Positions 12,762 through 62,623 of a stretch of DNA of 64,000 bases are shown here, piece by piece. The notes beneath the pieces are model-generated. The model saw only the letters and a program-made list of their open reading frames with translations, ran no database searches and had not been told where the DNA came from. The stretch is from Streptomyces canus (GTDB lineage Bacteria; Actinomycetota; Actinomycetes; Streptomycetales; Streptomycetaceae): contig NZ_CP107989.1 of the NCBI RefSeq assembly GCF_041435015.1, positions 1,364,001-1,428,000 on the forward strand, in the 5' to 3' direction. How positions within the stretch are numbered: position 1 is the stretch's first letter; each line of letters begins with the position of its first letter. Made by a program: the position numbers and the translations under genes.

Positions 12762-13181
12762 TCAGGCCGACACCGCCTGTGGGCTGCGCTCCTGGTCCGA
12801 ACCCGGCACCGGCTCGGACGGGTCGGCCCCCAGCGCCACGATGCGGTTGTCGTGGTCCACGTGCACGACCTGGGGTACGAGCGCCCGCGCCTCGGCGTCG
12901 GTCACCTGAGCGTAGCTGATGATGATCACCAGATCTCCGGGGTGGACGAGATGGGCGGCGGCACCGTTGATGCCGATCACGCCCGAGCCGCGCTCCCCCT
13001 CGATGACGTACGTCTCGAGCCGGGCGCCGTTGGTGATGTCGACGATGTGGACGAGCTCACCGGGCAGCAGATCGGCGGCGTCGAGGAGATCCGCGTCGAT
13101 GGTCACCGATCCCACGTAGTGCAGGTCGGCCTGGGTGACGGTGGCTCGGTGGATCTTGGACTTGAACAGAGTACGCAGCAC
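12762..13181 (-). CDS. panD: Aspartate 1-decarboxylase precursor
   Basis: 139-aa pyruvoyl enzyme that makes beta-alanine for pantothenate/CoA synthesis. The self-cleavage site is Gly24-Ser25 in [10 protein letters not shown]; Lys9, Arg54 and Tyr58 of the active site are in place. The C-terminal ~20 residues are a variable tail. It lies 34 nt upstream of the small acetyltransferase in the same direction; some bacteria regulate PanD cleavage with a GNAT protein (PanZ/PanM), though this neighbour is of a different, shorter type. Confidence 0.95.
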
Positions 13182-13390
13182 TTTGGACTCCTAGAAGACG
13201 GCTCCCCGCCAGCTTCCTGCAGGTCAGGGGCGTCGTTCACTGTACATCGGCATGCCTTCGACTCGAAGACCAAGCCAAGATCTAACGCTTGGTCATCTAT
13301 GCAGGTCATAGGCATGATGGAGCCGCCCGGGTCAGCACATGGTCAGCTTGGGGCGCGGTTCGCTACGTGGCTCGACAGCTCGCCCGCGGC

Positions 13391-13680
13391 ATGGGGTCGT
13401 TCTTCAAGGAGCACGACTGCGGCAAACCGACCCGTTGCGCGCACCCATACACGATCCGTTTCAGGGACGCTCTGGGCAAGCGGCGCGAAGAGGCGGGCTT
13501 CGGCACGCAGGACGAGGCGATCCAACGTCCTACCCAAAGAGACACTGAAAAAGGCGCACGGCGCCCTCTGTGGCGGAAGCCCGCCGCGAGTTGGGGCAAA
13601 GGACGGTCGCGGAATGCGAAGCTCTGGCGGCTCCGACAGCGCCGGATGACCGAATACTCCACCGGAGAGAGATTTCCAGC
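13391..13680 (+). pseudogene. Frameshifted tyrosine-recombinase (integrase) N-terminal remnant
   Basis: One frame reads GSFFKEHDCGKPTRCAHPYT followed by IRFRDALGKRREEAGFGTQDEA, the arm-type DNA-binding N-terminus common in integrases of streptomycete integrative elements. The match then moves to another frame (AEARRELGQRTVAE, from about 13570) and back (RLRQRRMTEYSTGE, to about 13670). At least two frameshifts, and the core and catalytic domains are absent. It is a dead trace of an integrative element; no intact attachment site or partner genes were seen. Confidence 0.7.
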
Positions 13681-13744
13681 GGGTCCCGGTGCGGTTCCGA
13701 GGCAGGGCAGGATCGGGTGGCTGGTCTCCCGCAGGCTGTGGGCG

Positions 13745-14080
13745 GGGATGCGCGTGCCCTCGTCCGGAGCGTCCGGTCGAGGGCACGCTACTGCGCCTCC
13801 AAGGGGCGTCCTCATGCCGGCCAAGGCACTGGCCACCGATCTTGACCCGCACGGGACACGCGTCAACTGTGTCGCCCCCAGCATCGTCGACACCCCGATG
13901 TCCCGCACCGACCTCGGCCTCACCGAGAGCGGCTTCGACGGCCAGCCGTTCCCCGTACACCGGCCCGAGGAGATCGCGGCGGCCGTCTGCTACCTCGTCT
14001 CCGACCTGGCCCGGGGCGTCAACGGCACCACCCACGTACTCGACTTCGGCGCCCTGGCCCGCTCGGCGTTCCCCGCCTGA
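13745..14080 (+). pseudogene. Truncated, frameshifted short-chain dehydrogenase (SDR) C-terminal remnant
   Basis: The SDR active-site segment ARYCASKG (Tyr-x-x-x-Lys) is read in one frame at 13782-13805, and the continuation MPAKALATDLDPHGTRVNCV, then a PxxxxTPM segment and GVNGTTHVLDFG, in another, ending at a TGA at 14078. The N-terminal Rossmann half is missing and one base is gained or lost at the SKG junction. It abuts the integrase remnant. Confidence 0.75.
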
Positions 14081-16080: not shown

Positions 16081-17547
16081 ATGGCCGCACGCACCGGCAA
16101 GGAATACCTCGAGCGACTCTCCGCCTCCCGCCCCACCGTCCACATCCAGGGCGAGACCGTCACCGGAGGGATCCAGGATCACCCCGCGTTCCGCAACGTG
16201 GTGCGCACCTACGCGGAGCTGTACGACCTCCAGCACACTGCCGAGCACAAGGACACCCTCACCTACACCTCCCCCACCTCCGGTGAGCCGGTCGGCACCT
16301 CCTTCCTCACCCCGAAGACCCCGGAGGACCTGACCAAGCGCCGCAAGGCGTTCAAGGTGTGGGCCGACCACAGCAACGGCATGCTGGGCCGCACCGGTGA
16401 CTACATGAACAGCTCGCTGATGGCCCTCGCCTCGGCCGCCGACTGGTTCGCCCAGGCCAACCCGGCCTTCGGCGAGAACGTCCTGCGCTACTACGAGAAG
16501 GTCCGCGAGGAAGACCTTCTGTGCACCCACACGCTGATCCCGCCGCAGGTCAACCGCTCCGTCGCGGGCACCCAGCAGGCGGGCGGCAAGCTCGCCGCGC
16601 GGATCGTGAAGGAGGACGACAACGGCATCGTGATCCGGGGCGCGCGCATGCTCGCCACCATCGCCCCCTTCGCCGACGAGATGCTCGTGTTCCCCTCGAC
16701 CGTGCTGCGCGGCACTCCCGAGGACAAGCCGTACTCCTACGCCTTCGCCATCCCCAACGACGCCCCCGGTCTGCGCTACGTCGCCCGCGAGCCCCTCGAC
16801 TACGACCGGCCGCGCCACGACCACCCTCTCGCCTCGCGCTTCGAGGAGTCGGACTGCGTGGTCGTCTTCGACGACGTGCACGTGCCCTACGAGCGGTGTT
16901 TCGCCATCGGCGACGCCGAACTGTGCAACGGCTTCTACTCGCAAACCTCGTCCGTGGTGCACATGACCCACCAGGTCGTCACTCGCACCACCGCCAAGAC
17001 CGAGTACATCCTCGGCCTGGTGACGCTGCTCACCGAGGCCATCGGCATCGAGCAGTTCCAGCACGTCCAGGAGGACATCGCCGAGATCATCACCACGTTG
17101 GAGATGCTCCGCGCCTTCCTGCGCGCCGCCGAGGCCGACGCCCAGGTCAACGAGTACGGCGTGCTCACCCCGGCCTTCGCCCCGCTCAACGCGGCCCGCA
17201 ACCTCTACCCCAAGCTCTACCAGCGCTTCCCGCAGATCCTGCGCAAGCTCGGCGCCTCCGGCCTGATGGCCACCCCGACCGAGCTCGACATCAACGGCCC
17301 GGCCGCCGAGGACATCGAGGCGTACCTGCAGTCCGCGACCCTGACCGGCTCCGAGCGCGTCAGGCTGTTCCGGCTCGTGTGGGACACCTGCATCTCCGCG
17401 TTCTCCGGCCGCCAGGCGCTGTACGAGTACTACTTCTTCGGCGACCCGGTCCGCATGGCCGGCGCGTACGTGAAGTCCTACGACCGCGAGCCGTACAAGG
17501 CCAAGGTGCAGGACTTCTTGAATCGGCACAGCCTGGAGCGTTCCTGA
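16081..17547 (+). CDS. hpaB: 4-hydroxyphenylacetate 3-monooxygenase, oxygenase component
   Basis: 488-aa FADH2-dependent group D monooxygenase that hydroxylates 4-hydroxyphenylacetate to 3,4-dihydroxyphenylacetate (homoprotocatechuate). HpaB-family landmarks: RTGKEYLERL start, WADHSNGMLGRTGDYMNSSL, HTLIPPQVNRS, and the C-terminal helical bundle with FSGRQALYEYYFFGDPVR. The family also includes 4-nitrophenol and chlorophenol hydroxylases, but the gene order with hpaE and hpaD supports hydroxyphenylacetate. Its stop overlaps the next start (TGATG). Confidence 0.93.
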   Translation: MAARTGKEYLERLSASRPTVHIQGETVTGGIQDHPAFRNVVRTYAELYDLQHTAEHKDTLTYTSPTSGEPVGTSFLTPKTPEDLTKRRKAFKVWADHSNGMLGRTGDYMNSSLMALASAADWFAQANPAFGENVLRYYEKVREEDLLCTHTLIPPQVNRSVAGTQQAGGKLAARIVKEDDNGIVIRGARMLATIAPFADEMLVFPSTVLRGTPEDKPYSYAFAIPNDAPGLRYVAREPLDYDRPRHDHPLASRFEESDCVVVFDDVHVPYERCFAIGDAELCNGFYSQTSSVVHMTHQVVTRTTAKTEYILGLVTLLTEAIGIEQFQHVQEDIAEIITTLEMLRAFLRAAEADAQVNEYGVLTPAFAPLNAARNLYPKLYQRFPQILRKLGASGLMATPTELDINGPAAEDIEAYLQSATLTGSERVRLFRLVWDTCISAFSGRQALYEYYFFGDPVRMAGAYVKSYDREPYKAKVQDFLNRHSLERS

Positions 17548-18980
17548 TGACGCACCCGCTGGGGAATCCCCCATCGAAGGTCATCGCCGTTCACCTCAAC
17601 TACCGCAGCCGAGCCAGGGAGCGGGGCCGCATCCCCGCCCAGCCGTCGTACTTCCTCAAGCCGCCGTCGTCACTGGCGGGCACCAAGGAAGCGATCGTCC
17701 GGCCGGCGGGCTGTGAACTCCTCGGGTTCGAGGGGGAGATCGCCCTCGTCATCGGCTCGCGTGCCCAGCGCGTGGCGCCGGAGGACGGCTGGTCGTACGT
17801 CCGCTGGGTGACGGCCGCCAACGACGCGGGCGTGTACGACCTGCGGTACGCCGACCGGGGCTCCAACCTCCGTTCCAAGGGCGCCGACGGGTTCACGCCC
17901 CTGGGGCCACGGCTGCTGGACGCCCGCGAGGTCGACCCGGCCGGGCTGAGGCTGAGTACCTGGGTCAACGGCGAGCTGGTGCAGGACGACACGACGGACA
18001 CGCTGCTGTTTCCCTTCGGGCAACTGGTCGCGGACCTGTCCCGGTTGGTCACCCTGGAGCCTGGGGACGTGATCCTCACCGGTACGCCGGCCGGCGCTTC
18101 GGTCGTCCGCCCCGGTGACCTCGTCGAGGTCGAGGTCTCGTGCGGGGAGCTGTCCACCGGGCGGCTGCGCAACCCGATCGCCGACGGCGACCCGCTCGCT
18201 CCCTACGGGGCCATGCCCAGGAGCGACGAAGCCGAGCGCGAGTCGGCATACGGCTCCGCCTACCTACGGGAGCCGCTGCTCGACCCGCGCCTGGCGGACG
18301 GACTGCGCTCGGTCGCCGTGGCCACGCTCAGCGCCCAGTTGCGCGCACGCGGCCTGCCGCACATGTCCGTCGACGGCGTACGACCGGTCGGCTCCGACGG
18401 CGGGACGATGGTGGGTGTCGCCCACACGTTGCGCTATCTGCCGCTGCGCGAAGACCTGTTCAAGCGGTACGGCACCGGCATGAACGCCCAGAAGCGGGCG
18501 ATCGAGGAGGTGCGGCCCGGCCATGTCCTGGTGATGGACGCCCGCCGCGACGCAACCGCGGGCACACTCGGCGACATCCTCGCGCTGAGGGCCCTCAAGC
18601 GCGGGGCGGCCGGCGTCGTCACCGACGGTGCCGTGCGCGACGCCGCCGCCATCGCGGACCTCGGCCTGCCGGTGTACGCGGCCGGGGCCCACCCCTCGGT
18701 CCTCGGCCGCCGGCACGTCCCGTGGGACACCGGCGTACCGATCGCCTGCGGCGGCGCCCTGGTCCAGCCCGGGGACCTGATCGTCGGGGACTCCGACGGC
18801 GTGATCGTCGTCCCGCCGGACCTCGTCGAGGAACTGATCGTCGACTGCCGGGAGCAGGAGCGCCAAGAGCGCTTCATCACCGAGCGGGTCGCGGCGGGCG
18901 AGAGCGTCGAAGGCCTGTATCCGCTGGGGCCGGCCTGGCGGGACGCCTACCAGAACTGGTGCAAGGGAGAGACACAATGA
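17547..18980 (+). CDS. Fusion of HpaG-like fumarylacetoacetate-hydrolase domain with RraA-like aldolase/decarboxylase domain
   Basis: 477 aa. Residues ~1-215 form an FAH/HpaG domain: Glu-rich metal site near GCELLGFEGEIALVIG, TAANDAGVYDLRYADRGSNL, DGFTPLGPRLLD and GDVILTGTPAG. Residues ~250-470 form an RraA/HMG-aldolase-type domain with GTLGDILALRALKRGAAGV and the Asp-Gly-x-x-Arg-Asp metal/substrate motif (TDGAVRD), then GDSDGVIVVPP. In E. coli HpaG two FAH halves decarboxylate OPET and isomerise HHDD; here the second half is replaced by an RraA fold, a family known for retro-aldol and oxaloacetate decarboxylation. It probably does two lower-pathway steps. Overlaps hpaB and the next gene by a few bases. 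Confidence 0.85.
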   Translation: MTHPLGNPPSKVIAVHLNYRSRARERGRIPAQPSYFLKPPSSLAGTKEAIVRPAGCELLGFEGEIALVIGSRAQRVAPEDGWSYVRWVTAANDAGVYDLRYADRGSNLRSKGADGFTPLGPRLLDAREVDPAGLRLSTWVNGELVQDDTTDTLLFPFGQLVADLSRLVTLEPGDVILTGTPAGASVVRPGDLVEVEVSCGELSTGRLRNPIADGDPLAPYGAMPRSDEAERESAYGSAYLREPLLDPRLADGLRSVAVATLSAQLRARGLPHMSVDGVRPVGSDGGTMVGVAHTLRYLPLREDLFKRYGTGMNAQKRAIEEVRPGHVLVMDARRDATAGTLGDILALRALKRGAAGVVTDGAVRDAAAIADLGLPVYAAGAHPSVLGRRHVPWDTGVPIACGGALVQPGDLIVGDSDGVIVVPPDLVEELIVDCREQERQERFITERVAAGESVEGLYPLGPAWRDAYQNWCKGETQ

Positions 18981-25039: not shown

Positions 25040-25266
25040 GCCCTGTCTCCACCTCTGATGCGAGGCGGGAGCCGGGGCCGATTTCCTGGCAGGGGCGAAG
25101 GTCCCGGGTTACCAACGGAATTCACTGACCTGCGGAAACGTAACCCACGTCGGGTGGACTTCCGCCTGGCACGACGCCTGCCGGGCCACCGACTGCCGTC
25201 GCCGCACACACGCCGTAAGCTCAATGGGGGATGCCGTGCAGCCGTGTCAGTGCGGAGAACCCTTCC

Positions 25267-26349
25267 ATGACCGACCAGTACACCCTCGCATTCGATTCCG
25301 GTGCCGATCCCTCCACCGCCCGGGTCGGCGGCAAGTGCGCCGGTCTGCTGACGATGACCCGCTGCGGGGTACCGGTGCCGCCCGGGTTCGCGGTGACCAC
25401 TGATGCCTTCGACGCCGTACTCGACGGCGGCGGTCCTCGTGCGGAGATCGGCTCCGTCCTCGCCGGGCTCGACCCCTCCGACACGGCCGACACCGAAAGG
25501 CGTGCCGCCGAGGTCCGCGGGCTGATCACAGGCCGGCCCGTACCGCCCCCGGTCGCTACGGCCGTCACCGCGGCCTACCGAGTCCTCGGGGCGGCCGGGG
25601 ACGTCCCCGTGTCCGTGCGGTCGAGCGCCGAGATGGAGGACCTGCCGGCCATCAGCTTCGCCGGGCAGTACGACACGTACCTGGGGGTCCGCGGGGCCGA
25701 CGCCGTCGTCGACGCCGTACGCCGCTGCTGGGCGAGCCTGTGGACGGCACGGGCGATCACCTACCGTGCCGCACGCGGGGTGCCCGAGCTGGGGCTGAGC
25801 ATGGCGGTCGGCGTGCAGGCAATGGTCGACGCCCGCACCGCCGGTGTGGCCCTGACCGTGAACCCGGCCGACGGCGACCCGTCGAAGATCGTCATCGACG
25901 CCGCCTGGGGACTCGGCGACCCGGTGGTGTCCGGCGGGACGACCCCCGACAACTACGTCGTGGACAAGGTGCTGCTCGTTCCCGTGAAGACGACCCTGTC
26001 GCCGATCCACCACGAGCTGGTCCTCGCTCCGGACGGGCACGGCCTCGTCCGACGTGCGGTCGAGGACGCCCGACGGAGGCAGGCGTGCCTGGCGCCCGCC
26101 GAAATCACCGCGGTCGCCGAGCTGGCCAAGAGAGTCGAGCGCCACTACGGCTGCCCGCAGGACATCGAGTGGGCCATCGCCTGTGACGCGGCCCTGCTCC
26201 CGGACGGCGGCCCCCGAGTGCTGCTGCTCCAGGCGCGGTCCGAGACGTTCTGGAGTCGCAGACCACGCGCGAGAGCCGCGGTGGTGCCCGGGGCGGGCGT
26301 CTCCAGCATCGCCGACACCATGCTCGGACTCGGGACCCTCCCGACCTGA
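25267..26349 (+). CDS. PEP synthase N-terminal-like ATP-binding protein (PpsB/CreH-like subunit)
   Basis: 360 aa, about 39 kDa: only the ATP-grasp part of PEP synthase/PPDK. Motifs: VGGKCAGLLTMTRCGVPVPP, VSVRSSAEMEDLPAISFAGQ, AWGLGDPVVSGGTTPDNYVV and the end signature LLLQARSETFW. The mobile phosphohistidine and PEP barrel domains are not in this chain; a phosphohistidine domain is in the next gene. In phenylphosphate synthase of Thauera/Azoarcus a 40-kDa ATP-binding subunit works with a 70-kDa phosphohistidine subunit in just this way. Likely role: transfers the beta-phosphate of ATP to the partner's histidine for phosphorylation of a phenol. Substrate is inference. Confidence 0.8.
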   Translation: MTDQYTLAFDSGADPSTARVGGKCAGLLTMTRCGVPVPPGFAVTTDAFDAVLDGGGPRAEIGSVLAGLDPSDTADTERRAAEVRGLITGRPVPPPVATAVTAAYRVLGAAGDVPVSVRSSAEMEDLPAISFAGQYDTYLGVRGADAVVDAVRRCWASLWTARAITYRAARGVPELGLSMAVGVQAMVDARTAGVALTVNPADGDPSKIVIDAAWGLGDPVVSGGTTPDNYVVDKVLLVPVKTTLSPIHHELVLAPDGHGLVRRAVEDARRRQACLAPAEITAVAELAKRVERHYGCPQDIEWAIACDAALLPDGGPRVLLLQARSETFWSRRPRARAAVVPGAGVSSIADTMLGLGTLPT

Positions 26350-26399
26350 GCGACTCGACCCCAGGCCCAGCCATCATCGGCCCGACGAAGGGATCTCGC

Positions 26400-28241
26400 A
26401 TGGCGACCCAGCAGCGCACGTCGTCCGGACAGCACACGAGCTTCCCCAGCCCCTACGAGCAGCCGGCGCCCGAGGGAGCCGAGGACTGGCGGAGCCTGTA
26501 CCCCTACAACGTGCTCTTCCAGCCCGAGCGGCGTGCCATGGAGGAGGCGAAGTTCTGGTTCTGCGACAGCCAGCACTGGCCCACGGTGCTCAAACCGTTC
26601 GAGACGATCGGCCCCGAACTGTCGACGAAGTGCCTGGGCCAGTTCAACACCCGGTACTTCCTCGTACCGCCCGCCAACGGCCTGGAATGCCGCATCCACC
26701 AGGGCTACGTCTACCACAGCCCGGTCACGGTCGATCCGGACGAGGCGGCGGCGAGGGTGCCGGAGTTCCTCCGGCGCGCCGGGTACTACTTCAAGCACTG
26801 GGACGCGCTGCTGGTCAACTGGAAACGCAAGGTTCTCGCCACGATCCGGGAGCTGGAGGCTCTCCGGTTCGGCGAACTGCCCGACGCCCAGCCGTACGAG
26901 GAGATCGAGCGCGGCACCGGGCTGGACGCGACCGACACCCTGCTCGGCGGGTACGACAGGCTCCTGGCGCTGTGCCATCGGGCCTGGCAGTACCACTTCG
27001 AGTTCCTCAACCTCGGCTACGCGGCCTACCTGGACCTCTTCCAGGCGTGCAGACAGTGGTTCCCCGGTATCCCCGACCAGGCCGTCGCGACCATGGTCCA
27101 AGGCGTGGACATGGAACTGTTCCGCCCGGACGACGAGCTGAAGCGACTGGCGAAACTCGCCGTCGAACTCGGCCTGGACCACCTGCTGACCGCCCCCGGA
27201 CCGGCCCCCGGCCAGGACACCCTCGACACCGTCGCGTCGGCGCCGAGGGGCGAGGACTGGCTGGTTGCCTGGGAGACGGCCCGCGACCCGTGGTTCAACT
27301 TCACCTCCGGCAACGGCTTCTATGCCGACGACCGGTACTGGCGGGACGATCCCGCGCTCCCCCTGGGCTACATCCATGACTACGTCCTGCGGCTGCGCCG
27401 GGGCGAGTACATCGATCGGCGCGTGGCCGAACTCGTCGCCGAACGAGACCGGATCACGGGCGAGTACGCCGCCCTGCTCGACCCCGCACAGCGCGCGGAC
27501 TTCGAAGCCAAACTGCGGCTCGCCCGACAGGTCTACCCGTATGTGGAGAACCACAACTTCTACATCGAGCACTGGACCATGGGCGTCTTCTGGCGCAAGA
27601 CCCGCCAACTGTCCGCACTCCTGCACCGGGCGGGCTTCTGGCCCGGCGAGAACGACATGCTGTACCTCACGCGCGACGAGGCCCGCGTCGCATTGTTCGA
27701 CTTCGCGTCCGGCTGGGCGCGGGGCTCCGCGCCCCTTGGCCCCGACCACTGGCCGCCCGAGGTGGAACGGCGGCGGCGAATCGTGCGTGCCCTCGCGTCC
27801 CGGCGCCCGGAACCGGCGCTGAACCGGCCGCCGGCGGCCGTCACGGAACCGTTCAGCATCATGCTGTGGGGCATCACCAGCGAACGCGTCCGGTCCTGGC
27901 TGACGGACCTGGACACCACCGGTGACCTGATCGGCCTGGCCGCCTCACCCGGACGCGCGGAAGGCCCGGCCCGGATCGTCCGCGGCCCCGCCGAGCTGGA
28001 TCTCGTACAGGACGGAGAGATCCTCGTCGCGCCGGTCACCGCGCCCAGCTGGGCCCCGGTGTTCGGGCGGATACGAGCCACCGTGACCGACATAGGCGGG
28101 GTGATGTCGCACGCCGCCATCGTCTGCCGCGAGTACTCCCTGCCCGCTGTGACGGGGACCGGGTCGGCGTCCACCCGTATCAGGACGGGGCAGCGGATCC
28201 GGGTCGACGGCACGGCCGGCACCGTCACCGTCCTCGACTGA
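26400..28241 (+). CDS. PEP-utilising mobile (phosphohistidine) domain protein (PpsA/CreI-like subunit)
   Basis: 613 aa, about 70 kDa. The C-terminal ~90 residues are a PEP-utilising mobile domain: GRAEGPARIVRGPAELD, then GGVMSHAAIVCREYSLPAV with the phosphoacceptor His571. The first ~500 residues are helical and Trp/Tyr-rich (YPYNVLFQPERRAMEEAKFW; PWFNFTSGNGFY; YVENHNFYIEHWTMGVFWRK), unlike the PEP/pyruvate barrel, so this part probably binds the aromatic acceptor, as proposed for phenylphosphate synthase subunit 1. AAGGGA precedes the ATG. It lies 50 nt after the ATP-binding gene and 27 nt before the HD hydrolase. Confidence 0.8.
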   Translation: MATQQRTSSGQHTSFPSPYEQPAPEGAEDWRSLYPYNVLFQPERRAMEEAKFWFCDSQHWPTVLKPFETIGPELSTKCLGQFNTRYFLVPPANGLECRIHQGYVYHSPVTVDPDEAAARVPEFLRRAGYYFKHWDALLVNWKRKVLATIRELEALRFGELPDAQPYEEIERGTGLDATDTLLGGYDRLLALCHRAWQYHFEFLNLGYAAYLDLFQACRQWFPGIPDQAVATMVQGVDMELFRPDDELKRLAKLAVELGLDHLLTAPGPAPGQDTLDTVASAPRGEDWLVAWETARDPWFNFTSGNGFYADDRYWRDDPALPLGYIHDYVLRLRRGEYIDRRVAELVAERDRITGEYAALLDPAQRADFEAKLRLARQVYPYVENHNFYIEHWTMGVFWRKTRQLSALLHRAGFWPGENDMLYLTRDEARVALFDFASGWARGSAPLGPDHWPPEVERRRRIVRALASRRPEPALNRPPAAVTEPFSIMLWGITSERVRSWLTDLDTTGDLIGLAASPGRAEGPARIVRGPAELDLVQDGEILVAPVTAPSWAPVFGRIRATVTDIGGVMSHAAIVCREYSLPAVTGTGSASTRIRTGQRIRVDGTAGTVTVLD

Positions 28242-28268
28242 GTCTGCCCGCACCAAAAGGAGACCGGC

Positions 28269-28976
28269 ATGCCCCCCACACCGCTTCCTGTCCTCCCGCT
28301 CGTCCCGTCGCTCGTCCCCCCGGCGGACAAGGTGCCCGCGCTGGTGCGCCTGACCGGGGTCGAACAGGAGATCTGGGACCGAGCCCTGCCGTATCTCGAC
28401 GTGCGGGACAACGACGCGCACTCACTCCACGCCTACGGCCTCGCGGGCGCGCTGCTGACCGCGATGCCGCAGGCCCGCGCCGAAGTGGTGCTCCCCGCGA
28501 TCCTGCTGCACGACACCGGCTGGAAGACCGTCGACCCGGCACGCATCCTGCCCGCCATCGCCCCCGGCTCCCACGACCCCGAGACCGTCCGCCGACACGA
28601 GACCGAGGGCTCCGTCATCGCCCACCGCATCCTCACCGACCTCGGATACCCGCAGGACGTCACCGCGCGGATCACGGAGATCGTCGACGGCCACGACACC
28701 CGGCGGCACGCCCTCAACGCCGACGACGCAGTGGTCAAGGACGCTGACAAGCTGTGGCGGCTCACCCCGCACGGGCTGCGGACCGTCGGCTCCTGGTTCC
28801 GCCTCGACGCCGAGCAGACGCTGCGACTGGTCCTGTCCGTCACCTACGACCGGCTGCTCACCGAAACGGGCCGCGCGATCGGCCGAGCGCTGGCCGCCTG
28901 CGCGGGGTTCGACCACGGCCCGCGGCCGGGGTTCACGGCCCGGACCCCACCGGCTGGCGGTGACCATACAGGTTGA
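28269..28976 (+). CDS. HD-domain metal-dependent phosphohydrolase
   Basis: 235 aa. HD-superfamily ligands: His54 (SLHAYGLAG), His81-Asp82 (LLHDTGW) and Asp158/Asp160 (VKDADKLWR). AAAAGGAG is positioned before the ATG. HD enzymes remove phosphate from nucleotides or small phosphomonoesters. Placed directly after the phenol-phosphotransferase-like pair, it could remove a temporary phosphate group, comparable to the phosphohydrolase CreD recalled from the Corynebacterium p-cresol pathway (I am not certain CreD is of this fold). A nucleotide substrate is the alternative. Confidence 0.75.
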   Translation: MPPTPLPVLPLVPSLVPPADKVPALVRLTGVEQEIWDRALPYLDVRDNDAHSLHAYGLAGALLTAMPQARAEVVLPAILLHDTGWKTVDPARILPAIAPGSHDPETVRRHETEGSVIAHRILTDLGYPQDVTARITEIVDGHDTRRHALNADDAVVKDADKLWRLTPHGLRTVGSWFRLDAEQTLRLVLSVTYDRLLTETGRAIGRALAACAGFDHGPRPGFTARTPPAGGDHTG

Positions 28977-29007
28977 TTATGGGCATCGCGGGCACCACGC
29001 TGGACGC

Positions 29008-31419
29008 ATGGACACATCGCGCGCCCTCGGGCTGGTCGTGACCGACCATGACGGCCTGATCACGGGGTGGAGCCGGGGGGCGGAACAGCTGCTGGGCCAC
29101 ACGGCCGCGGAGGCCGCGGGGCAGCCGGTCGCGGAGCTGCTGGGGCTGGAGGACGCCGCGGGCCCCGAGGAACGCCACATGGCGCTCCCCGTGCGGGACA
29201 GGGACGGGAGCCTGCTGACGCTGCCGGTCTCCAGCTACCCACTGGCCGATGGCATGGCCGGGTGCGAAACGAGGCCCGGTTCAATCCTGGTCGTCGGCCC
29301 ACCGCCGACAGGGGACGCGCTACAGGAGCGGGAGGCGCTGTCCACGTGGACCCTCGAAGCCTCGCCGTTGGCACTCACGGTCTATGACACCGACCTGCGC
29401 TGTGTGTGGCAGAGCGACCGGATGCGCCGCCTGAGCGGACTCTCCGACGAGGAACGGCGCGGGCGCCGCCTCACCGATGTTCTGCCCGCCCCGGACGCGG
29501 CGAGGTGGGAGGAGCGGGTACGGCGGGCTCTGCTGACGGGCGAGGAGCAGACCGACGAGATCAGGGGCAGCAACCCGGCGGCGTCCCCCACCCGGGTCTT
29601 CGGTGTCTCCGCGACGCCACTGCGGGACGAACGGGGCCAGACGCTCGGTGTCTGCACCACCGTGACGGACGTCACCCGCGCCAGCCGCGACCGAGAGCGC
29701 CTGGCCCTGCTGAACGACGCGAGCGTCCGCGTCGGCAGCACCCTGGACGTGACCCAGACCGGCCGGGAGCTGACCGAGGTGGTGGTGCCCCGGTTCGCCG
29801 ACTTCGCCCGCGTCGACCTGCTGGAAGTCCTGCTCAGGGGAGACGAGCCCGCTCCCGGGCCGATCGCCGGGGCCGTCCGGCTGCGCCGGATCGCGGAGCT
29901 GAACCTGTTCGAGGGCGTTCTGGAGGCGCAGACCACCGCCGGCGACTCCGACGTCTATCTCGTCAACTCACCCGCGGCACTGTGCCTGGCCAGCGGACGC
30001 TCGGCGATGTACCGGACCGAGGACCCGGTGATCCGCGCCTGGGCGGCCCTGAGCCCGGCCCGGCAGGCGAAGATCGCCCGGTTCGGGACGCACTCGTGGA
30101 TGCTACTGCCCGTCAGGGCCCGCGGAACGACGCTCGGCGTGGTCATGCTCACCCGAACCCGCGAGACTCCAGAGCCCTTCGAGCCCGGCGACCTCCCCCT
30201 GGCCGAGGATCTGGTGGCCCGGGCGGCGGTGTGCCTGGACAACGCGCGGCGGTTCACCCGGGAGCGGACGGCGGCACTCGCGCTTCAGCGAAGTCTGCTT
30301 CCGCGCCGGCTGCCGCACCAGTCGGCGGTGCAGGTGGCCTCGCGCTATCTGCCCGCGTCACCGAGCATCGGGGTGGGGGGCGACTGGTACGACGTGATCC
30401 GTCTGTCGGGTGAGCGGGTGGCCCTGGTGGTCGGGGACGTGGTGGGACACGGGATCCACGCGGCGGCGGCGATGGGGCGGCTTCGAACCGCCGTACGTAC
30501 CCTCGCGGACGTGGATCCGACCCCGGACGAATTGCTGACCCGACTGGACGACCTGGTGATCCAGCTCTCCGCGGAGTCGGACGGTGACCGGGACGACGAT
30601 CTGGCGACGAACATCGGTGCGACGTGTCTGTACGCGGTGTACGACCCGGTGTCGCGGCGGTGTTCGCTGGCCCGGGCCGGTCACCCGGCGCCTGTTCTGG
30701 TGGCACCTGACGGGGCGGCCGGCTTCCTGGAGGTCCCGGCCGGACCGCCGCTCGGCCTGGGAGGTGTGCCGTTCGAGTCGGTAGAGGTGACGCTGTCGCC
30801 GGGAAGTCTGCTGGCGCTGTACACCGACGGCCTGGTCGAGGCCCGACAGCGCGACCTGGACGCGGGCCTGGAGGTGCTGCGAACAGCGCTGACCGTGCCC
30901 GCCGACTCGCTGGAGGACGTGTGCGAACACGTGGTGAGGACGGCGCTGCCGAACAGCCCCGTCGATGACGCGGCGTTGTTGCTGGTGCGGACCAGGGCGC
31001 TGGACGGGCGGCGGGTCGCGGCGTGGGATATCGCGGCAGACGCGGCGGCTGTGTCGCGGGTGCGTTCGGAGAGCGTGCGCAGGATGGTGTCCTGGGGTCT
31101 GCAGGAGGCCGCGTTCGTGACCGAACTGGTGGTCAGCGAGCTGGTGACGAACGCCATCCGGTACGGCGCGCCCCCGATCCAGCTGCGGCTGATCCATGAC
31201 CACGTGCTGACCTGCGAGGTCTCGGACGCGAGCACTACCGCGCCGCACATGCGGCGAGCTCGGGTGTTCGACGAGGGGGGACGAGGCCTGCTGCTCGTCG
31301 CCCAGCTGACGCAGCGATGGGGGACCCGGCAGACCTCGACGGGCAAGACCATCTGGTGCGAGCAGGCCCTGCCGACCGAGGTGGGTGCCGTCGGGCCGGA
31401 GTCGGCCGAGGCGGCCTGA
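29008..31419 (+). CDS. PAS-PAS-GAF-SpoIIE phosphatase with C-terminal anti-sigma-type kinase domain
   Basis: 803-aa cytoplasmic signalling protein. PAS domain (ALGLVVTDHDGLITGWSRGA), second PAS (ASPLALTVYDTDLRCVWQSD), GAF (GSTLDVTQTGRELTEVV through VCLDNARRFTRER), SpoIIE PP2C-type phosphatase (GVGGDWYDVI; VVGDVVGHGI; LLALYTDGLVEAR; SPVDDAALLL), then HATPase_c (FVTELVVSELVTNAIRYG; DEGGRGLLLV). It resembles streptomycete regulators that dephosphorylate STAS antagonists and phosphorylate them through the kinase end. Start at ATG 29008 is inferred from where the PAS begins; a GTG at 28960 would overlap the HD gene. Signal sensed is unknown; GAF/PAS could bind an aromatic. Confidence 0.88.
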   Translation: MDTSRALGLVVTDHDGLITGWSRGAEQLLGHTAAEAAGQPVAELLGLEDAAGPEERHMALPVRDRDGSLLTLPVSSYPLADGMAGCETRPGSILVVGPPPTGDALQEREALSTWTLEASPLALTVYDTDLRCVWQSDRMRRLSGLSDEERRGRRLTDVLPAPDAARWEERVRRALLTGEEQTDEIRGSNPAASPTRVFGVSATPLRDERGQTLGVCTTVTDVTRASRDRERLALLNDASVRVGSTLDVTQTGRELTEVVVPRFADFARVDLLEVLLRGDEPAPGPIAGAVRLRRIAELNLFEGVLEAQTTAGDSDVYLVNSPAALCLASGRSAMYRTEDPVIRAWAALSPARQAKIARFGTHSWMLLPVRARGTTLGVVMLTRTRETPEPFEPGDLPLAEDLVARAAVCLDNARRFTRERTAALALQRSLLPRRLPHQSAVQVASRYLPASPSIGVGGDWYDVIRLSGERVALVVGDVVGHGIHAAAAMGRLRTAVRTLADVDPTPDELLTRLDDLVIQLSAESDGDRDDDLATNIGATCLYAVYDPVSRRCSLARAGHPAPVLVAPDGAAGFLEVPAGPPLGLGGVPFESVEVTLSPGSLLALYTDGLVEARQRDLDAGLEVLRTALTVPADSLEDVCEHVVRTALPNSPVDDAALLLVRTRALDGRRVAAWDIAADAAAVSRVRSESVRRMVSWGLQEAAFVTELVVSELVTNAIRYGAPPIQLRLIHDHVLTCEVSDASTTAPHMRRARVFDEGGRGLLLVAQLTQRWGTRQTSTGKTIWCEQALPTEVGAVGPESAEAA

Positions 31420-31819
31420 CCCGGTCCACAGCCGACCCGGGAACGACCGGCGAAACCGGCCGCGTTCCCAGCAGGTGACTCCACCGCCCTCCCGGGCGCA
31501 ACCGTTCAAGGACAGAACCACATGCTCACTCGGTGAGATCGCCGAGACCACCCGGAAAGGCGTGCACGGTTCACCTGCTGTCGGAAGCTCCGTCCGCGCC
31601 GTCCACGGCCACGCCACCCTGTACACCCGGCCCTCCGCCATCACCGAGAAGCGCGCCGGGTTCTCGCGCTCGCCACGGAGTCATTTCGTCGGTTCGACGA
31701 CCTCTGGGAGCGGCCGGGCCAAGGGCGGAGGCTGTCCCTGCACCGGGGGACGCGACGGCTGTATGCCAAGACACCTGTTTTGTCGTACTGTGCGCCAATC
31801 CGACGGAAGGAGGACTCCC
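31420..31819. other. Intergenic region upstream of the second araC
   Basis: 400 bp without a convincing gene. It carries the AAGGAGG ribosome-binding site of the next gene at 31807-31813. No terminator-like long stem and no clear promoter consensus were recognised, although a promoter for the araC-GMC-aldehyde dehydrogenase run should lie here. Confidence 0.5.
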
Positions 31820-32776
31820 GTGCCCACCATGACCACGCCGCCCGACGGGACTCCTGCAGAACGCTTCGACTTCTGGCGGACGCTCATCGGAAACAGCTTC
31901 GTCCCCCTGGAGGCGGTGCCCCGCGAGACGCCGGACTTCCGAGGGCGTCTGCGCAGCGCCCGGCTCGGCCCGGTGCAGGTCTCGGTCGTCGAAGCGAATG
32001 CCCACGGTGTGGCTCATACGCGTCGGCACATCGACCCCGATCTGCCGGACTTCGTGAAGGTGAGCCTGCAGTTGTCGGGGCAGTGTGTGCTGGCGCAGAA
32101 TGACCGGCAGGTGCTCCTGCAGCCGGGCGGACTGGCGCTTTACGACACCCGCTTTCCCTACACACTCGAGTTCCAGGACACCTATCGTCAGCTCGTCCTC
32201 ATGCTGCCCAGAGCCCTGCTCAGGCTCCCCGAGCAAGGGCTCGAGCGAGTCACGGCGGTCCCTGTGCCCTGCCAGACAGGTATCGGGCCGGTCGTTCTGC
32301 CCTTCCTGGGAGGGCTGGCGCAGCAGGTGGAGGAGCTGGAGTGCGTGGCGGCGCCACGGTTCGCGGACACCGTCGTCGACCTGCTCCAGACTCTCCTGGC
32401 ACCGTACGGCGAGGTCCCGCGGGATGTCCGCGAGGAAGGCCGGGACGCACTCACCCGGCGGATCCTGATGTACATGGAGCAGCGGCTGCCCGATCCGCAC
32501 CTCGGTCCCGACGAGATCGCCGCCGCCCACCACATCTCCCGCCGATACCTCTACAAGCTCCTGGCCGAGCAGGGACACACCGTCTCCGGCTGGATCCGGG
32601 AGCGGCGCCTTGCCCAGTGCCGCCGCGATCTCGCCGACCCCGCGCTGGCCCATCTGGCGGTCGCCGCCATCGGTGGCCGCTGGGGCTACCCCGACCCCGC
32701 GTATTTCAGTCACGCCTTCAAGTGCGCGTACGGCGTGAGCCCGCGTGAGGCGCGCATGACGCCCCAGCGCCCGTAG
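31820..32776 (+). CDS. AraC-family regulator, copy 2 of a paralogous pair
   Basis: 318 aa. Same architecture as the regulator at 22437: RFDFWRTLIGNSFVPLEAVP opening, DFVKVSLQLSGQCVLAQ, YDTRFPYT and a nearly identical helix-turn-helix (AAHHISRRYLYKLLAEQG; RWGYPDPAYFSHAFKCAYG). The GTG at 31820, with AAGGAGG 6 nt before it, gives MPTMTTPPDG, matching MPSMTTPRDD of copy 1, which supports both starts. It likely controls the following GMC oxidoreductase and aldehyde dehydrogenase. The near-identical recognition helices suggest shared or overlapping operators. Confidence 0.9.
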   Translation: MPTMTTPPDGTPAERFDFWRTLIGNSFVPLEAVPRETPDFRGRLRSARLGPVQVSVVEANAHGVAHTRRHIDPDLPDFVKVSLQLSGQCVLAQNDRQVLLQPGGLALYDTRFPYTLEFQDTYRQLVLMLPRALLRLPEQGLERVTAVPVPCQTGIGPVVLPFLGGLAQQVEELECVAAPRFADTVVDLLQTLLAPYGEVPRDVREEGRDALTRRILMYMEQRLPDPHLGPDEIAAAHHISRRYLYKLLAEQGHTVSGWIRERRLAQCRRDLADPALAHLAVAAIGGRWGYPDPAYFSHAFKCAYGVSPREARMTPQRP

Positions 32777-32922
32777 CCGACCGTCGGCGTCAGCACCGTC
32801 TTCGCCGTGCACGCCGCCTGTAGCGGCGAGAAGGAGCCGGCCAGCCCTTTGTGCCCGCCGCCGCAAGGCATCGTGCACAGGACCACAAGCCTGCACCCGG
32901 CTGATGGAGCGACGCTCACCGC

Positions 32923-34473
32923 ATGCGAGCCGCACACACCGAATACGACCACATCGTGGTCGGCGCCGGGTCCGCGGGCTGCGCCGTCGCGCGCAGGCTC
33001 ATCGACGCCGGCCGAAGCGTTCTGCTGATCGAGACGGGCGGCCGGGACGACAACCCGGCCATCCACGACCCGGGCCGCCTGTGGGAGCTCTGGAACTCCC
33101 CCCAGGATCACGCCTTCACCACCGAGCCTCAACGGCACGCGAACGGGGCCCAGGTGTTCTGGCCGCGGGGCAAGGTCCTCGGCGGATCCAGCGCCCTCAA
33201 CGGCATGATCTACGTCCGGGGCCACCGCTCCGACTACGACGACTGGGCGATGCGGTACGGCGCGACCGGCTGGTCGTACGACGAGGTGCTGCCCTACTTC
33301 AAACGCTCGGAGGACTTCGAGGACGGCCCCTCCGCCTACCACGGCGCAGGCGGCCCCCTGCCCGTCACCCGCAACCATTCGCCCAACCCCGTCACCAGTG
33401 CGTTCATGGCGGCCTGCGAGCAGTACGGAATCCCCTACAACGACGACTGCAACGCCGAAGAGATCCTCGGCGTGAACCTCATCCACCGCACCATCCGCGA
33501 CGGCAGACGGGTCAGCGCCTGGACAGCCTTCGTACAGCCGGTCCTCGACAACCCCCTCCTCACGGTACGGACCGGAGCGCTGGTCACCCGCGTCCTCGTC
33601 GCAGGCGGCCGCGCCGTCGGCGTCGAGGTGTTCCACGAGGGCCACACGGACACCGTCCGCTGCTCGGGTGATGTGGTCCTGTCCGCCGGCACCATCGGCT
33701 CGGCGCAGCTGTTGCTGCTCAGCGGCATCGGCCCCGCCGACGAGCTGCGCGCCCTCGGCATCGGTGTGACCGCCGACCTGCCCGGGGTGGGCGGGAATCT
33801 GCACGACCACACCCTGACGCCGGTGGTGTGGGAGTCCGCCAGGGCTGTGCCCGAGGGCACAGCGAACAAGCTGGAGGCCCACTACTTCGCCAAGACCGAC
33901 CCATCCTTGCCCGCACCCGACCTGCAGCCCCTCATGTCCCACGTACCGCTGCCCGTGTCGGGGCAGACGGTGCCGGAGGAGGGCCACGGCTACTCCGTGC
34001 TGGCCGGCACGATCCGACCGCTCAGCAGGGGCCGACTCTGGCTGCGCTCCGCCGACCCCACGCAGGCACCGGCGCTCGACCCGAACCATTTCGCCGAGCC
34101 GGGCGATCTCACCGCCATGGTGGAAGCGGTCAAGCAAGTCCGCGAGATAGGGGCGCAGCGCGCACTCGGCGACTGGCGGTCGAAGGAGATCGCGCCGGGT
34201 CCGGGCATCCACACGGACGCCGAGATCGCCGCATACATCAAGCGCAACCTGCTCAGCTACCACCACCAGGTCGGCACCTGCCGCATGGGCACAGGCTCCG
34301 CAGCGGTCGTCGACCCCCGCCTGGCCGTCCACGGCCTTACGGGACTGCGGGTCGCCGACGCCTCCGTCATGCCGGCCGTCACCTCCGGCAACACTCACGC
34401 GCCCGCGGTCATGATCGGCGAGCGGTGTGCCGGCTTCGTCCTCGATCCACAGGAATTCGACGCACAGCGATGA
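32923..34473 (+). CDS. GMC-family FAD-dependent alcohol oxidoreductase
   Basis: 516 aa. N-terminal FAD-binding IVVGAGSAGCAVARRL, GMC signature 1 PRGKVLGGSSALNGMIYVRG, signature 2 VLSAGTIGSAQLLLLSGIGP, and C-terminal catalytic SYHHQVGTCRMG and SGNTHAPAVMIGE. Members oxidise choline, aliphatic or aryl alcohols to aldehydes. With the aldehyde dehydrogenase directly behind (ATGA overlap if its first ATG is used) it would take an alcohol to an acid; tyrosol or 4-hydroxyphenylethanol to 4-hydroxyphenylacetate would feed the hpa operon. Choline-to-betaine is the main alternative. No strong ribosome-binding site was seen before the ATG. Confidence 0.87.
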   Translation: MRAAHTEYDHIVVGAGSAGCAVARRLIDAGRSVLLIETGGRDDNPAIHDPGRLWELWNSPQDHAFTTEPQRHANGAQVFWPRGKVLGGSSALNGMIYVRGHRSDYDDWAMRYGATGWSYDEVLPYFKRSEDFEDGPSAYHGAGGPLPVTRNHSPNPVTSAFMAACEQYGIPYNDDCNAEEILGVNLIHRTIRDGRRVSAWTAFVQPVLDNPLLTVRTGALVTRVLVAGGRAVGVEVFHEGHTDTVRCSGDVVLSAGTIGSAQLLLLSGIGPADELRALGIGVTADLPGVGGNLHDHTLTPVVWESARAVPEGTANKLEAHYFAKTDPSLPAPDLQPLMSHVPLPVSGQTVPEEGHGYSVLAGTIRPLSRGRLWLRSADPTQAPALDPNHFAEPGDLTAMVEAVKQVREIGAQRALGDWRSKEIAPGPGIHTDAEIAAYIKRNLLSYHHQVGTCRMGTGSAAVVDPRLAVHGLTGLRVADASVMPAVTSGNTHAPAVMIGERCAGFVLDPQEFDAQR

Positions 34474-34508
34474 GGAGCACAGCAATGGGGAGTACAGCAA
34501 TGGGGCAG
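34470..34508 (+). repeat. 15-nt tandem repeat giving three in-frame start codons
   Basis: ATGAGGAGCACAGCA, ATGGGGAGTACAGCA and ATGGGGCAG follow each other in frame at 34470, 34485 and 34500. Each of the last two ATGs has its own purine-rich GAGGAG or GGGGAG 7 nt upstream, supplied by the previous copy. Confidence 0.75.
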
Positions 34509-35936
34509 ACCCTCTTCATCGGCGGCACCTGGCTGTCGGCCGCCTCCGGCGCCGAGTTCGACACCGTCGACCCGGCGACCGGCCAGCCGCACGCCCGCTG
34601 CGCCGAGGCCGGGCCACTTGACGTGGACGACGCCGTCACCGCCGCCCGCGCGGCGCTCGAAAGCCCCGCCTGGGCAGGACTCGCGCCCGCCGAACGCGCC
34701 CGCGTCCTGTGGCGCGTGGGCGACCTGATCGACGAACACGCCGAGGAACTGGCCGAGTTGGAGACCCGCGATCAGGGCCAGCCGCTCGGGATCTCACGGA
34801 TGGTGAGCGTCAGGAGCGCGGCGGAGCACTTCCGTTACTACGCCGGATGGGTCACCAAGCTCTACGGTGAGACGGCGCCCGTGTCCTTCCCGAACGTGCT
34901 GCAGTACACGAAGCGGGAGCCGGTCGGCGTCTGTGCCCTCATCACGCCTTGGAACTTCCCGCTCATGATCGCGAGTTGGAAGATCGCACCCGCCCTGGCG
35001 TGCGGCAACACGGTCATCGTGAAGCCCGCCGAACAGACACCCATGACGACGGTCCGGCTGGTGGAGCTGTGCCAGGAGGCGGGCTTGCCGGACGGTGTGG
35101 TGAACCTGCTGACCGGCGGCCCGGAGGCCGGCCGCGCCCTGGTCGAGCACCCGGGCGTCGACAAGGTGTCCTTCACCGGCTCCACGGAGACCGGCCGCGC
35201 GATCGTGCGGGCCTCGGCCGGCAATCTGAAGCGGGTCTCATTGGAGCTGGGCGGCAAGGCGCCGAGCATCGTGCTGCCCGACGCCGATCTCGACGCGGCC
35301 GTCGCCGGCTGCCTGCAGGGTGCGCTCCTCAACAGCGGCCAGGTGTGCGCCGCATACACCCGCTTCCTCGTCCACCGCTCCCTCGCCGACGAGTTCGCCG
35401 AACGCTGCGCCAAGGCCGTCAGCGAGATGAGAATCGGACCGGGCAGCGCGCCGGAGACGGAACTCGGCCCGCTGGTCACCGCCGACCACCTCGCCCATGT
35501 CGACGCACTGGTCCGCAGCGGCGTCGAGGAGGGGGCGACCCTGCTCACCGGCGGATCTCGCGCCGAAGACCTCCCCGGTTACTTCTACCGACCCACCGTC
35601 TTCACCGGCGTGAGCGACGACATGCGCATCGCCCGCGAGGAGATCTTCGGCCCCGTGCTCTGCGTCCTTCCCTACGACGACGAGGACGAGGCCGTCGCCC
35701 GCGCCAACGACACCGAATACGGCCTCGCAGCCGCAGTCTGGACCCGTGACGTGGCCGCCGCCCACCGCCTCGCCGGGAACATCCGCGCCGGAACGGTCTT
35801 CATCAACATGCCCAACCCCGTGGACGCCTCGGCCCCCTGGGGCGGCTTCGGCGCCAGTGGCTGGGGCCGCGAGATGGGGAGCGGCGCGCTCGACCTGTAT
35901 ACCGAGGTCAAGAGCGTTTGGACGTCTCTGGCATAA
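34485..35936 (+). CDS. NAD(P)-dependent aldehyde dehydrogenase
   Basis: 483 aa from ATG 34485 (starts at 34470 or 34500 are also possible). Cofactor motif FTGSTETGR, general base Glu254 in LELGGKAPS, nucleophile Cys288 in NSGQVCAAYTR, and the C-terminal GGFGASGWGREMG. The NSGQVC form is typical of betaine/phenylacetaldehyde/indoleacetaldehyde-type dehydrogenases rather than HpaE. Follows the GMC oxidoreductase with almost no gap, so the two likely act in sequence on one alcohol. A perfect palindrome follows the gene. Confidence 0.9.
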   Translation: MGSTAMGQTLFIGGTWLSAASGAEFDTVDPATGQPHARCAEAGPLDVDDAVTAARAALESPAWAGLAPAERARVLWRVGDLIDEHAEELAELETRDQGQPLGISRMVSVRSAAEHFRYYAGWVTKLYGETAPVSFPNVLQYTKREPVGVCALITPWNFPLMIASWKIAPALACGNTVIVKPAEQTPMTTVRLVELCQEAGLPDGVVNLLTGGPEAGRALVEHPGVDKVSFTGSTETGRAIVRASAGNLKRVSLELGGKAPSIVLPDADLDAAVAGCLQGALLNSGQVCAAYTRFLVHRSLADEFAERCAKAVSEMRIGPGSAPETELGPLVTADHLAHVDALVRSGVEEGATLLTGGSRAEDLPGYFYRPTVFTGVSDDMRIAREEIFGPVLCVLPYDDEDEAVARANDTEYGLAAAVWTRDVAAAHRLAGNIRAGTVFINMPNPVDASAPWGGFGASGWGREMGSGALDLYTEVKSVWTSLA

Positions 35937-57701: not shown

Positions 57702-57810
57702 GGCGTTTCCTCCCACTGAGGCGGCGGTCGTCAGTCAGAGCCGCGGGGACGGTGATTGATACAGCGCCAAACCGGTGTGGCCTGCCACCTGGGCCACTAC
57801 CATCCATGGA

Positions 57811-60417: not shown

Positions 60418-60440
60418 TGCCCCGGGGGTGCGTGAAGTGT

Positions 60441-60486
60441 GGGGCGGCCTGACCCCTCCCCCGAATACTGGGGGTCAGACCGCCCC
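60441..60486. terminator. Bidirectional terminator between CHAT and LuxR genes
   Basis: GGGGCGGCCTGACCCC pairs with GGGGTCAGACCGCCCC over 15 pairs with one mismatch and a 14-nt loop, lying between the convergent 3' ends. Confidence 0.75.
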
Positions 60487-60500
60487 GGTCCGGGTACGGC

Positions 60501-62525: not shown

Positions 62526-62543
62526 CACGGAAGCAAGAGCACC

Positions 62544-62578
62544 GCTACTCAGTCCTGATACAGGGGGACTTGAGTAGC
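62544..62578. promoter_or_regulatory. Inverted repeat in the luxR-metzincin divergent promoter
   Basis: GCTACTCA (62544-62551) and TGAGTAGC (62571-62578) are perfect 8-bp arms separated by 19 nt. A further ACTCAG copy occurs at about 62583-62588. Candidate binding site for the adjacent LuxR-type regulator. Confidence 0.55.
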
Positions 62579-62623
62579 CCCCGACTCAGGCGCCCCGAGA
62601 CGCCTCACGGCACGCTGAACCCC

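What the first reader, a model, noticed from the sequence alone, without database searches (positions are those of the whole stretch)
25267..28976. Phenylphosphate-synthase-like phosphotransferase pair plus HD phosphohydrolase inside an aerobic 4-hydroxyphenylacetate island
Seen: a 360-aa ATP-binding protein (PEP-synthase N-terminal type), a 613-aa protein with a C-terminal phosphohistidine domain (His571) and no PEP barrel, and an HD hydrolase, consecutive and co-directional, right after hpaBCDE and its permease. Known: anaerobic phenylphosphate synthase is split in the same 40 + 70 kDa way; in Corynebacterium p-cresol catabolism a CreH/CreI pair phosphorylates the phenol, and CreD removes the phosphate after oxidation (recalled). 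Inference: a phenol hydroxyl is phosphorylated and later freed by the HD enzyme, as protection or as a trap after uptake. No P450 or UbiD-type carboxylase is in the window, so the oxidation step between would differ from both models.
Basis: partly seen in the sequence, partly recalled or inferred. Interest (0 to 1): 0.82.

Follow-up and report, generated by a model that had tools for sequence, protein, structure and literature searches.

The report
Stand-alone phenol kinase gene cassette
A Streptomyces genome carries a compact four-gene cassette that most likely attaches phosphate to a small phenol, takes it off again, and is wired to a sensor-type regulator; it grew out of a cresol-degrading gene set but has lost the degrading enzymes, so the phosphate may serve signalling or protection rather than feeding.

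Summary
The three genes are real, intact and as described (25267-26349, 26400-28241, 28269-28976). The first pair is a two-component phenolic dikinase of the CreHI/HpeHI/PpsAB kind, nearest to cre-type proteins (H subunit 60-63%), not a rifampin phosphotransferase. The link to 4-hydroxyphenylacetate catabolism is not supported. The real unit is a 6.27-kb, four-gene cassette (25164-31434): kinase I, kinase H, HD hydrolase, and a PAS-GAF-SpoIIE-HATPase regulator. It recurs at other sites in Streptomyces (10 of 11 distinct loci fetched for this kinase clade have all four genes), with no hpa gene in the stretches held. In two cassette-free hpa islands the permease lies next to the GMC oxidoreductase, so the cassette looks inserted here. 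The kinase clade nests inside the cre (4-cresol) kinases, but the cre P450, ferredoxin, reductase and dehydrogenase genes are gone from the locus, and no CreJ orthologue was found in 7 of 7 genomes of the clade. The HD protein is not the CreD orthologue: it belongs to a second HD clade that many cre clusters also carry. Best reading: phenol phosphorylation/dephosphorylation uncoupled from oxidation and tied to a SpoIIE-type regulator. Kinase chemistry is well supported by homology; substrate, HD activity and regulatory output are inferred. New variant of a known kind.

The parts
25164..31434 (+). whole cassette, about 6.27 kb, four co-directional genes plus about 100 bp upstream
   Evidence: 89-92% DNA identity to four other Streptomyces loci whose homology stops at nearly the same ends; 6 of 6 pairwise comparisons among those four give the same block of 6.2-6.4 kb
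25267..26349 (+). KinI: 360-aa ATP-grasp subunit (CreI/HpeI/PpsB type)
   Evidence: PF01326 7e-95; best PDB match 9GOJ = HpeI; K23, R118, E301, Q322, R324 conserved
26400..28241 (+). KinH: 613-aa substrate plus swivel subunit, phosphohistidine His571 (CreH/HpeH/PpsA type)
   Evidence: NF006150 929 bits over a 650 cut-off; AlphaFold pLDDT 91; RPH-like over most of its length
28269..28976 (+). HD-domain hydrolase, second HD clade of cre clusters (not CreD)
   Evidence: PF01966; H51, H81, D82, H110, H142, D143, D160 invariant in 40 of 40; tree; model pLDDT 91.6
29008..31419 (+). PAS-GAF-SpoIIE phosphatase-HATPase regulator (longest ORF starts 28960)
   Evidence: Pfam PAS_4, GAF, SpoIIE, HATPase_c_2; relatives at 65-88% after HD in the 10 full cassettes
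31810..32776 (+). AraC2 (FeaR-like), second AraC copy between the cassette and GMC; not part of the cassette
   Evidence: NF007243 151 bits, below its cut-off of 199; 72-73% DNA identity to the AraC of L140, L141, L142
23648..25003 (+). left flank: MFS permease of the hpa island
   Evidence: 79% DNA identity to L140 and L142, where it lies next to GMC
32842..35936 (+). right flank: GMC oxidoreductase and aldehyde dehydrogenase of the hpa island
   Evidence: 79-80% DNA identity to L140, L141, L142

Best explanation
A self-contained cassette for reversible phosphorylation of a small phenol. KinI binds ATP; His571 of KinH takes the beta-phosphate and passes it to a phenol hydroxyl (mechanism published for HpeHI and PpsAB, inferred here). 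The HD metallohydrolase most likely removes that phosphate again (inferred). The PAS-GAF-SpoIIE-HATPase protein, encoded just behind them, probably senses the phenol, its phosphate or the attendant stress and acts on an anti-sigma/anti-anti-sigma pathway (inferred from domains). The kinase descends from 4-cresol (cre) kinases but the cassette has shed the oxidising enzymes, and it is not part of the 4-hydroxyphenylacetate pathway into which it was inserted.
For: Family and catalytic residues. Cassette borders. Named loci: SpoIIE at >=60% identity in 7 of 7 cassette loci against 0 of 73 others; CreJ 0 of 7 against 71 of 73, CreG 0 of 7 against 73 of 73, CreF 0 of 7 against 65 of 73, CreE 0 of 7 against 61 of 73. 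CreJ orthologue absent in 7 of 7 genomes of the clade (six with the full cassette, one with kinase genes only; best match by E-value 32-38% per genome, one partial match 40%), present in 3 of 3 cre Streptomyces at 89-100%. HD relatives (both clades counted) occur in 9 of 392 Streptomyces genomes, all 9 among the 13 of 392 with KinH. Kinase clade SH-aLRT 100, nested in cre. dN/dS 0.18-0.51 in 17 pairwise comparisons, no stops.
Against: No substrate is shown. KinI has changes at positions that over 90% of cre relatives and all six outgroup rows keep (R205P, D254A), and KinH differs from cre at 9 positions conserved in each group, including F74L, Y82F and Y193H, so substrate or activity may have shifted. 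The own genome has 23 other SpoIIE-type matches, best by score 54%, up to 60% over part of the length, not far below the 65% of the most distant cassette copies, so the link between regulator and phenol rests on conserved position alone. One clade member (L025) has the kinase genes without HD or SpoIIE. L044 has an aldehyde dehydrogenase gene (40% to the window's) upstream. The nesting in cre rests on a quick tree with SH-aLRT 88 at the key branch and an unresolved order behind it.
Confidence: 0.55

Rival explanations
1. Detoxification or trapping of exogenous phenols: KinHI phosphorylates cresol-like phenols that diffuse in, the HD enzyme merely limits phosphate loss, and the SpoIIE protein is only a stress switch for expression.
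For: HpeHI has sub-micromolar KM values and its authors propose trapping after diffusion (PMC12167813); kinase nests among 4-cresol-type kinases; no oxidase in the cassette.
Against: A co-encoded hydrolase would undo a trap; the conserved block holds no exporter or further enzyme.
Confidence: 0.22
2. One reading: a phenol hydroxyl in the 4-hydroxyphenylacetate/tyrosol pathway is phosphorylated, processed and freed by the HD enzyme.
For: Adjacency and shared strand in this genome; four cassette genomes (G000, G108, G177, G248) are among the 18 of 295 with hpaD.
Against: In the other three, hpaD is 1.48 Mb away (G108) or on other contigs (G177, G248); no hpa gene in the stretches held for 7 of 7 named relatives; two cassette-free hpa islands have the flanking genes side by side.
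Confidence: 0.1
3. Shortened cre pathway: the aryl phosphate is oxidised by a non-orthologous P450 or other oxidase encoded elsewhere, then dephosphorylated by HD.
For: The own genome has 29 matches to CreJ at E <= 0.001; cre is the surrounding context in the kinase tree.
Against: No CreJ orthologue in 7 of 7 genomes of the clade; CreG, CreF, CreE not found in 7 of 7 named cassette loci; the HD clade is not CreD.
Confidence: 0.1
4. Decaying remnant of a cre cluster without function.
For: Lost partners; L025 lacks HD and SpoIIE.
Against: Catalytic-type residues kept, no stops, dN/dS well below 1 for all four genes, same four genes in 10 of 11 loci.
Confidence: 0.05

Closest known systems
CreHI, 4-methylbenzyl phosphate synthase of Corynebacterium glutamicum (cre pathway)
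   Same: Split kinase; KinH 60-63% identical to cre-type proteins on Rhodococcus plasmids, in a Corynebacterium MAG and in two Streptomyces; KinH clade nested among cre kinases; an HD hydrolase nearby
   Different: No CreJEFG at the locus; HD is of the other HD clade; no IclR gene as in actinobacterial cre loci, a PAS/SpoIIE gene instead. CreH of C. glutamicum itself was not available for comparison
HpeHI of Rhodococcus rhodochrous GD02
   Same: Same two components, motif T/SxxGGxxxH, Met in place of the regulatory Thr, RPH-like substrate domain
   Different: KinH only 43-44% identical to hpe-type relatives (L038, L031); no hpe biotin carboxylase at the 7 named cassette loci
PpsAB, phenylphosphate synthase (Thauera, Azoarcus)
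   Same: Split dikinase, 45-46% identity to an Azoarcus plasmid pair beside ppc genes
   Different: No phenylphosphate carboxylase genes at the 7 named cassette loci; aerobic host (recalled for Streptomyces)
Rifampin phosphotransferase (RPH)
   Different: RPH is one chain (PMC12167813); sequence match of KinH to RPH limited to residues 510-613
PAS/GAF-SpoIIE-HATPase regulators of Streptomyces (OsaC-like; name recalled)
   Same: Domain order
   Different: This copy sits beside a phenol kinase in 10 of 11 loci; best paralogue by score in the genome 54%

Membership tests
Two-component phenolic dikinases (CreHI, HpeHI, PpsAB) | Separate ATP-grasp (about 40 kDa) and substrate/swivel (about 70 kDa) subunits | tested here: met
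   360 + 613 aa, separate adjacent ORFs
Two-component phenolic dikinases (CreHI, HpeHI, PpsAB) | Catalytic His in T/SxxGGxxxH, with Met two residues before it | tested here: met
   TDIGGVMSH, H571, M569 (motif from PMC12167813)
Two-component phenolic dikinases (CreHI, HpeHI, PpsAB) | H subunit resembles RPH swivel plus rifampin-binding domains | tested here: met
Two-component phenolic dikinases (CreHI, HpeHI, PpsAB) | ATP-dependent phosphorylation of a phenol with AMP as product | not testable with these tools
   needs purified proteins
Cre 4-cresol pathway | P450 CreJ with CreE/CreF and dehydrogenase CreG | tested here: not met
   0 of 7 named cassette loci; no CreJ orthologue in 7 of 7 genomes of the clade, window's included
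Cre 4-cresol pathway | CreD-type HD phosphohydrolase | tested here: not met
   window HD falls in the other HD clade; CreD identified by gene order creC-D-E
Hpe hydroxyphenylethanone pathway | Biotin carboxylase subunits next to the kinase | tested here: not met
   0 of 7 named cassette loci; none by Pfam among the window ORFs scanned
Anaerobic phenylphosphate synthase system | Phenylphosphate carboxylase genes next to the kinase | tested here: not met
   ppcA/B 0 of 7 named cassette loci; no UbiD among the window ORFs scanned
Rifampin phosphotransferase | Single chain with sequence similarity over the substrate domain | tested here: not met
   split chain; phmmer match only residues 510-613
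4-hydroxyphenylacetate (hpa) catabolic operon | Conserved linkage to hpa genes | tested here: not met
   0 of 7 named relatives in the stretches held; flanking genes side by side in two cassette-free islands

The most novel reading that the evidence does not exclude
The cassette is a phenol-phosphate signalling switch: KinHI writes and the HD enzyme erases phosphate on a small phenol, and the PAS/GAF-SpoIIE-HATPase protein reads the phenol or its phosphate and drives a sigma-factor partner switch. A catabolic kinase would thereby have been turned into a small-molecule sensor.
Probability: 0.22. Interest if true: 0.85.

Novelty: new variant of a known kind. Interest (0 to 1): 0.56.

Why it matters
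The characterised phenol dikinases named in the 2025 HpeHI paper (Cre, Hpe, Pps) all start a catabolic route; that paper says it is unclear why phenols are phosphorylated and expects homologues in other processes (PMC12167813). This cassette is a concrete candidate for such another process: a kinase nested among catabolic ones, kept with a hydrolase and a regulator but without the oxidising enzymes. It also points to a second HD hydrolase in many cre clusters whose role is unknown to me.
Full report
What is there. The window is part of a 10.68-Mb genome, Streptomyces by its closest named relatives. The three ORFs of the finding are confirmed. Before them lie hpaB, an hpcE-RraA fusion, hpaI, hpaE, hpaD, a FeaR-like AraC and an MFS permease; after them a PAS-GAF-SpoIIE-HATPase gene, a second FeaR-like AraC, a GMC oxidoreductase and an aldehyde dehydrogenase.

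Kinase identity. KinI's best solved relative is 9GOJ (5e-80, 273 bits), above PEP synthases (226, 194, 167 bits) and RPH (161 bits); PMC12167813 states that 9GOJ is HpeI. KinH scores 929 bits in NF006150 (cut-off 650) and aligns over about 600 residues at 60-63% with cre-type proteins, 46% with an Azoarcus PpsA-type and 43-44% with hpe-type proteins. Its swivel motif TDIGGVMSH fits the published T/SxxGGxxxH with Met in place of the regulatory Thr. An AlphaFold model (pLDDT 91) matches RPH over most of its length, as published for HpeH. Polar residues K23, R118, E301, Q322 and R324 of KinI are kept (their equivalence to RPH catalytic residues is recalled).

Context in relatives. With reference genes from a Rhodococcus cluster whose order agrees with cre genes cg0637-cg0645 of C. 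glutamicum, 73 of 80 loci look like cre clusters (CreG 73 of 73, CreJ 71 of 73, CreF 65 of 73, CreE 61 of 73; the two without CreJ have under 1 kb before KinH) and 7 of 80, all Streptomyces with KinH at 68-93%, have KinI-KinH-HD-SpoIIE and none of CreJ, G, F, E. One of the 7 (L044) has an aldehyde dehydrogenase gene upstream (40%); another (L041) is only a 9.6-kb contig. In the genus search 13 of 392 genomes have KinH at E <= 1e-60: 7 of the cassette clade (one being L025), 3 with cre clusters, 3 with hpe-type genes. In a class-wide draw 21 of 394 have it at E <= 1e-140; in the stretches held for the 20 besides the window none has the cassette: 12 have extradiol-type genes beside the kinase, 2 cre, 2 hpe-type, 4 none of my reference genes beyond the kinase and IclR.

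Borders. Window 25164-31434 is 89-92% identical in DNA to four other strains, and similarity ends at nearly the same points in all (left 25164, 25168, 25197, 25165; right 31434, 31424, 31409, 31440); a fifth (L041) matches in pieces at 79-83%. The four agree among themselves in 6 of 6 pairs. By called ORFs, no other gene was shared between the window (12-42 kb) and L022-L025 or L027 apart from SpoIIE paralogues in L023; L026 shares an aspartate decarboxylase (96%). Of nine hpa loci fetched elsewhere, two (L140, L142) run HpaD-AraC-MFS-GMC-ALDH without a break, one (L141, G108, which has the cassette 1.48 Mb away) HpaD-AraC-GMC-ALDH, one (L147) HpaD-AraC-ALDH, and five show hpa genes without this tail. 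So the cassette, with an extra AraC copy, appears to have entered an hpa island in this genome.

HD protein. HD relatives (both clades) occur in 9 of 392 Streptomyces genomes at E <= 1e-15, all among the 13 KinH genomes: a tight tie to phenol kinases. In a tree of 77 of the 140 HD matches found, two clades appear; of 91 loci with any HD match (duplicates and cassettes included) 49 have two. CreD, by its place between CreE and CreC, is in one clade; the window protein is in the other (SH-aLRT 98-100, quick tree). Metal-ligand-type residues are invariant in 40 of 40. I know of no experimental work on this second clade; I did not search the literature for it by name.

Evolution. The KinH tree (62 of the 99 matches found) puts the cassette clade as one group (100) inside the actinobacterial cre kinases (88 for leaving out the alphaproteobacterial ones; order behind that branch unresolved), with pps and hpe outside. 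It is a quick tree; long branches are flagged. Genes are under purifying selection by a simple count (dN/dS 0.18-0.51 in 17 comparisons). Clade-specific changes exist: 9 in KinH, 3 in KinI, among them KinI R205P and D254A at positions kept by over 90% of cre relatives and all six outgroup rows, which speaks for altered substrate or rate.

Mechanism. Shown for relatives in print: HpeHI and PpsAB are ATP:phenol dikinases using a phosphohistidine (PMC12167813, parts 1-4 of 6 and passages read; PMC9618137, parts 1-2 of 6 read). Inferred here: phenol as substrate (about 0.85), the HD enzyme as aryl phosphatase (about 0.6), regulatory coupling to SpoIIE (about 0.4). The lack of any oxidising enzyme in the cassette, and of a CreJ orthologue in 7 of 7 genomes of the clade, leaves a write-and-erase pair, which makes more sense for sensing or protection than for feeding.

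Noticed in passing
L154-L157, L159-L165, L167 (L155:7792-16107 examined): In 12 of the 20 other genomes of the class-wide draw, a KinHI pair at about 50% sits beside two extradiol-dioxygenase-like genes; in L155 also a Rieske oxygenase and a histidine-phosphatase domain. This may be an undescribed aryl-phosphate pathway using a Rieske oxygenase.
   Followed up: partly
cre clusters, e.g. L036:5053-5664 and 13181-13852: Many cre clusters have two different HD hydrolases, CreD and a second one of the window's type; the role of the second is unknown to me. Proteins of about 390 aa such as P0181 (Anaerolineae), P0185 and P0190 carry two such HD domains in tandem.
   Followed up: partly
L169 (G417): A cre-like set (P450, SDR, Fdx, FdR, ALDH) whose nearby kinase pair is of about 47% identity and sits next to hpe-type carboxylase genes.
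   Followed up: no
P0037: A 987-aa protein of Streptomyces sp. NPDC001292 with both PF01326 and PF00391, apparently a natural fusion of the two kinase subunits.
   Followed up: no
window 12762-13181 and L026:3662-4081: An aspartate decarboxylase gene, 96% identical, lies near the cassette in both genomes at different distances.
   Followed up: no
window 17544-18980: Fusion of an HpcE-type isomerase/decarboxylase with an RraA-like domain in the hpa cluster (PRK12764 family).
   Followed up: no
window 56274-63709: Subtilase, TPR-CHAT protein, LuxR-type regulator and an astacin-like gene in a row.
   Followed up: no
own genome C1:9829565-9830554: A second hpaD copy (89%) in the same genome.
   Followed up: no
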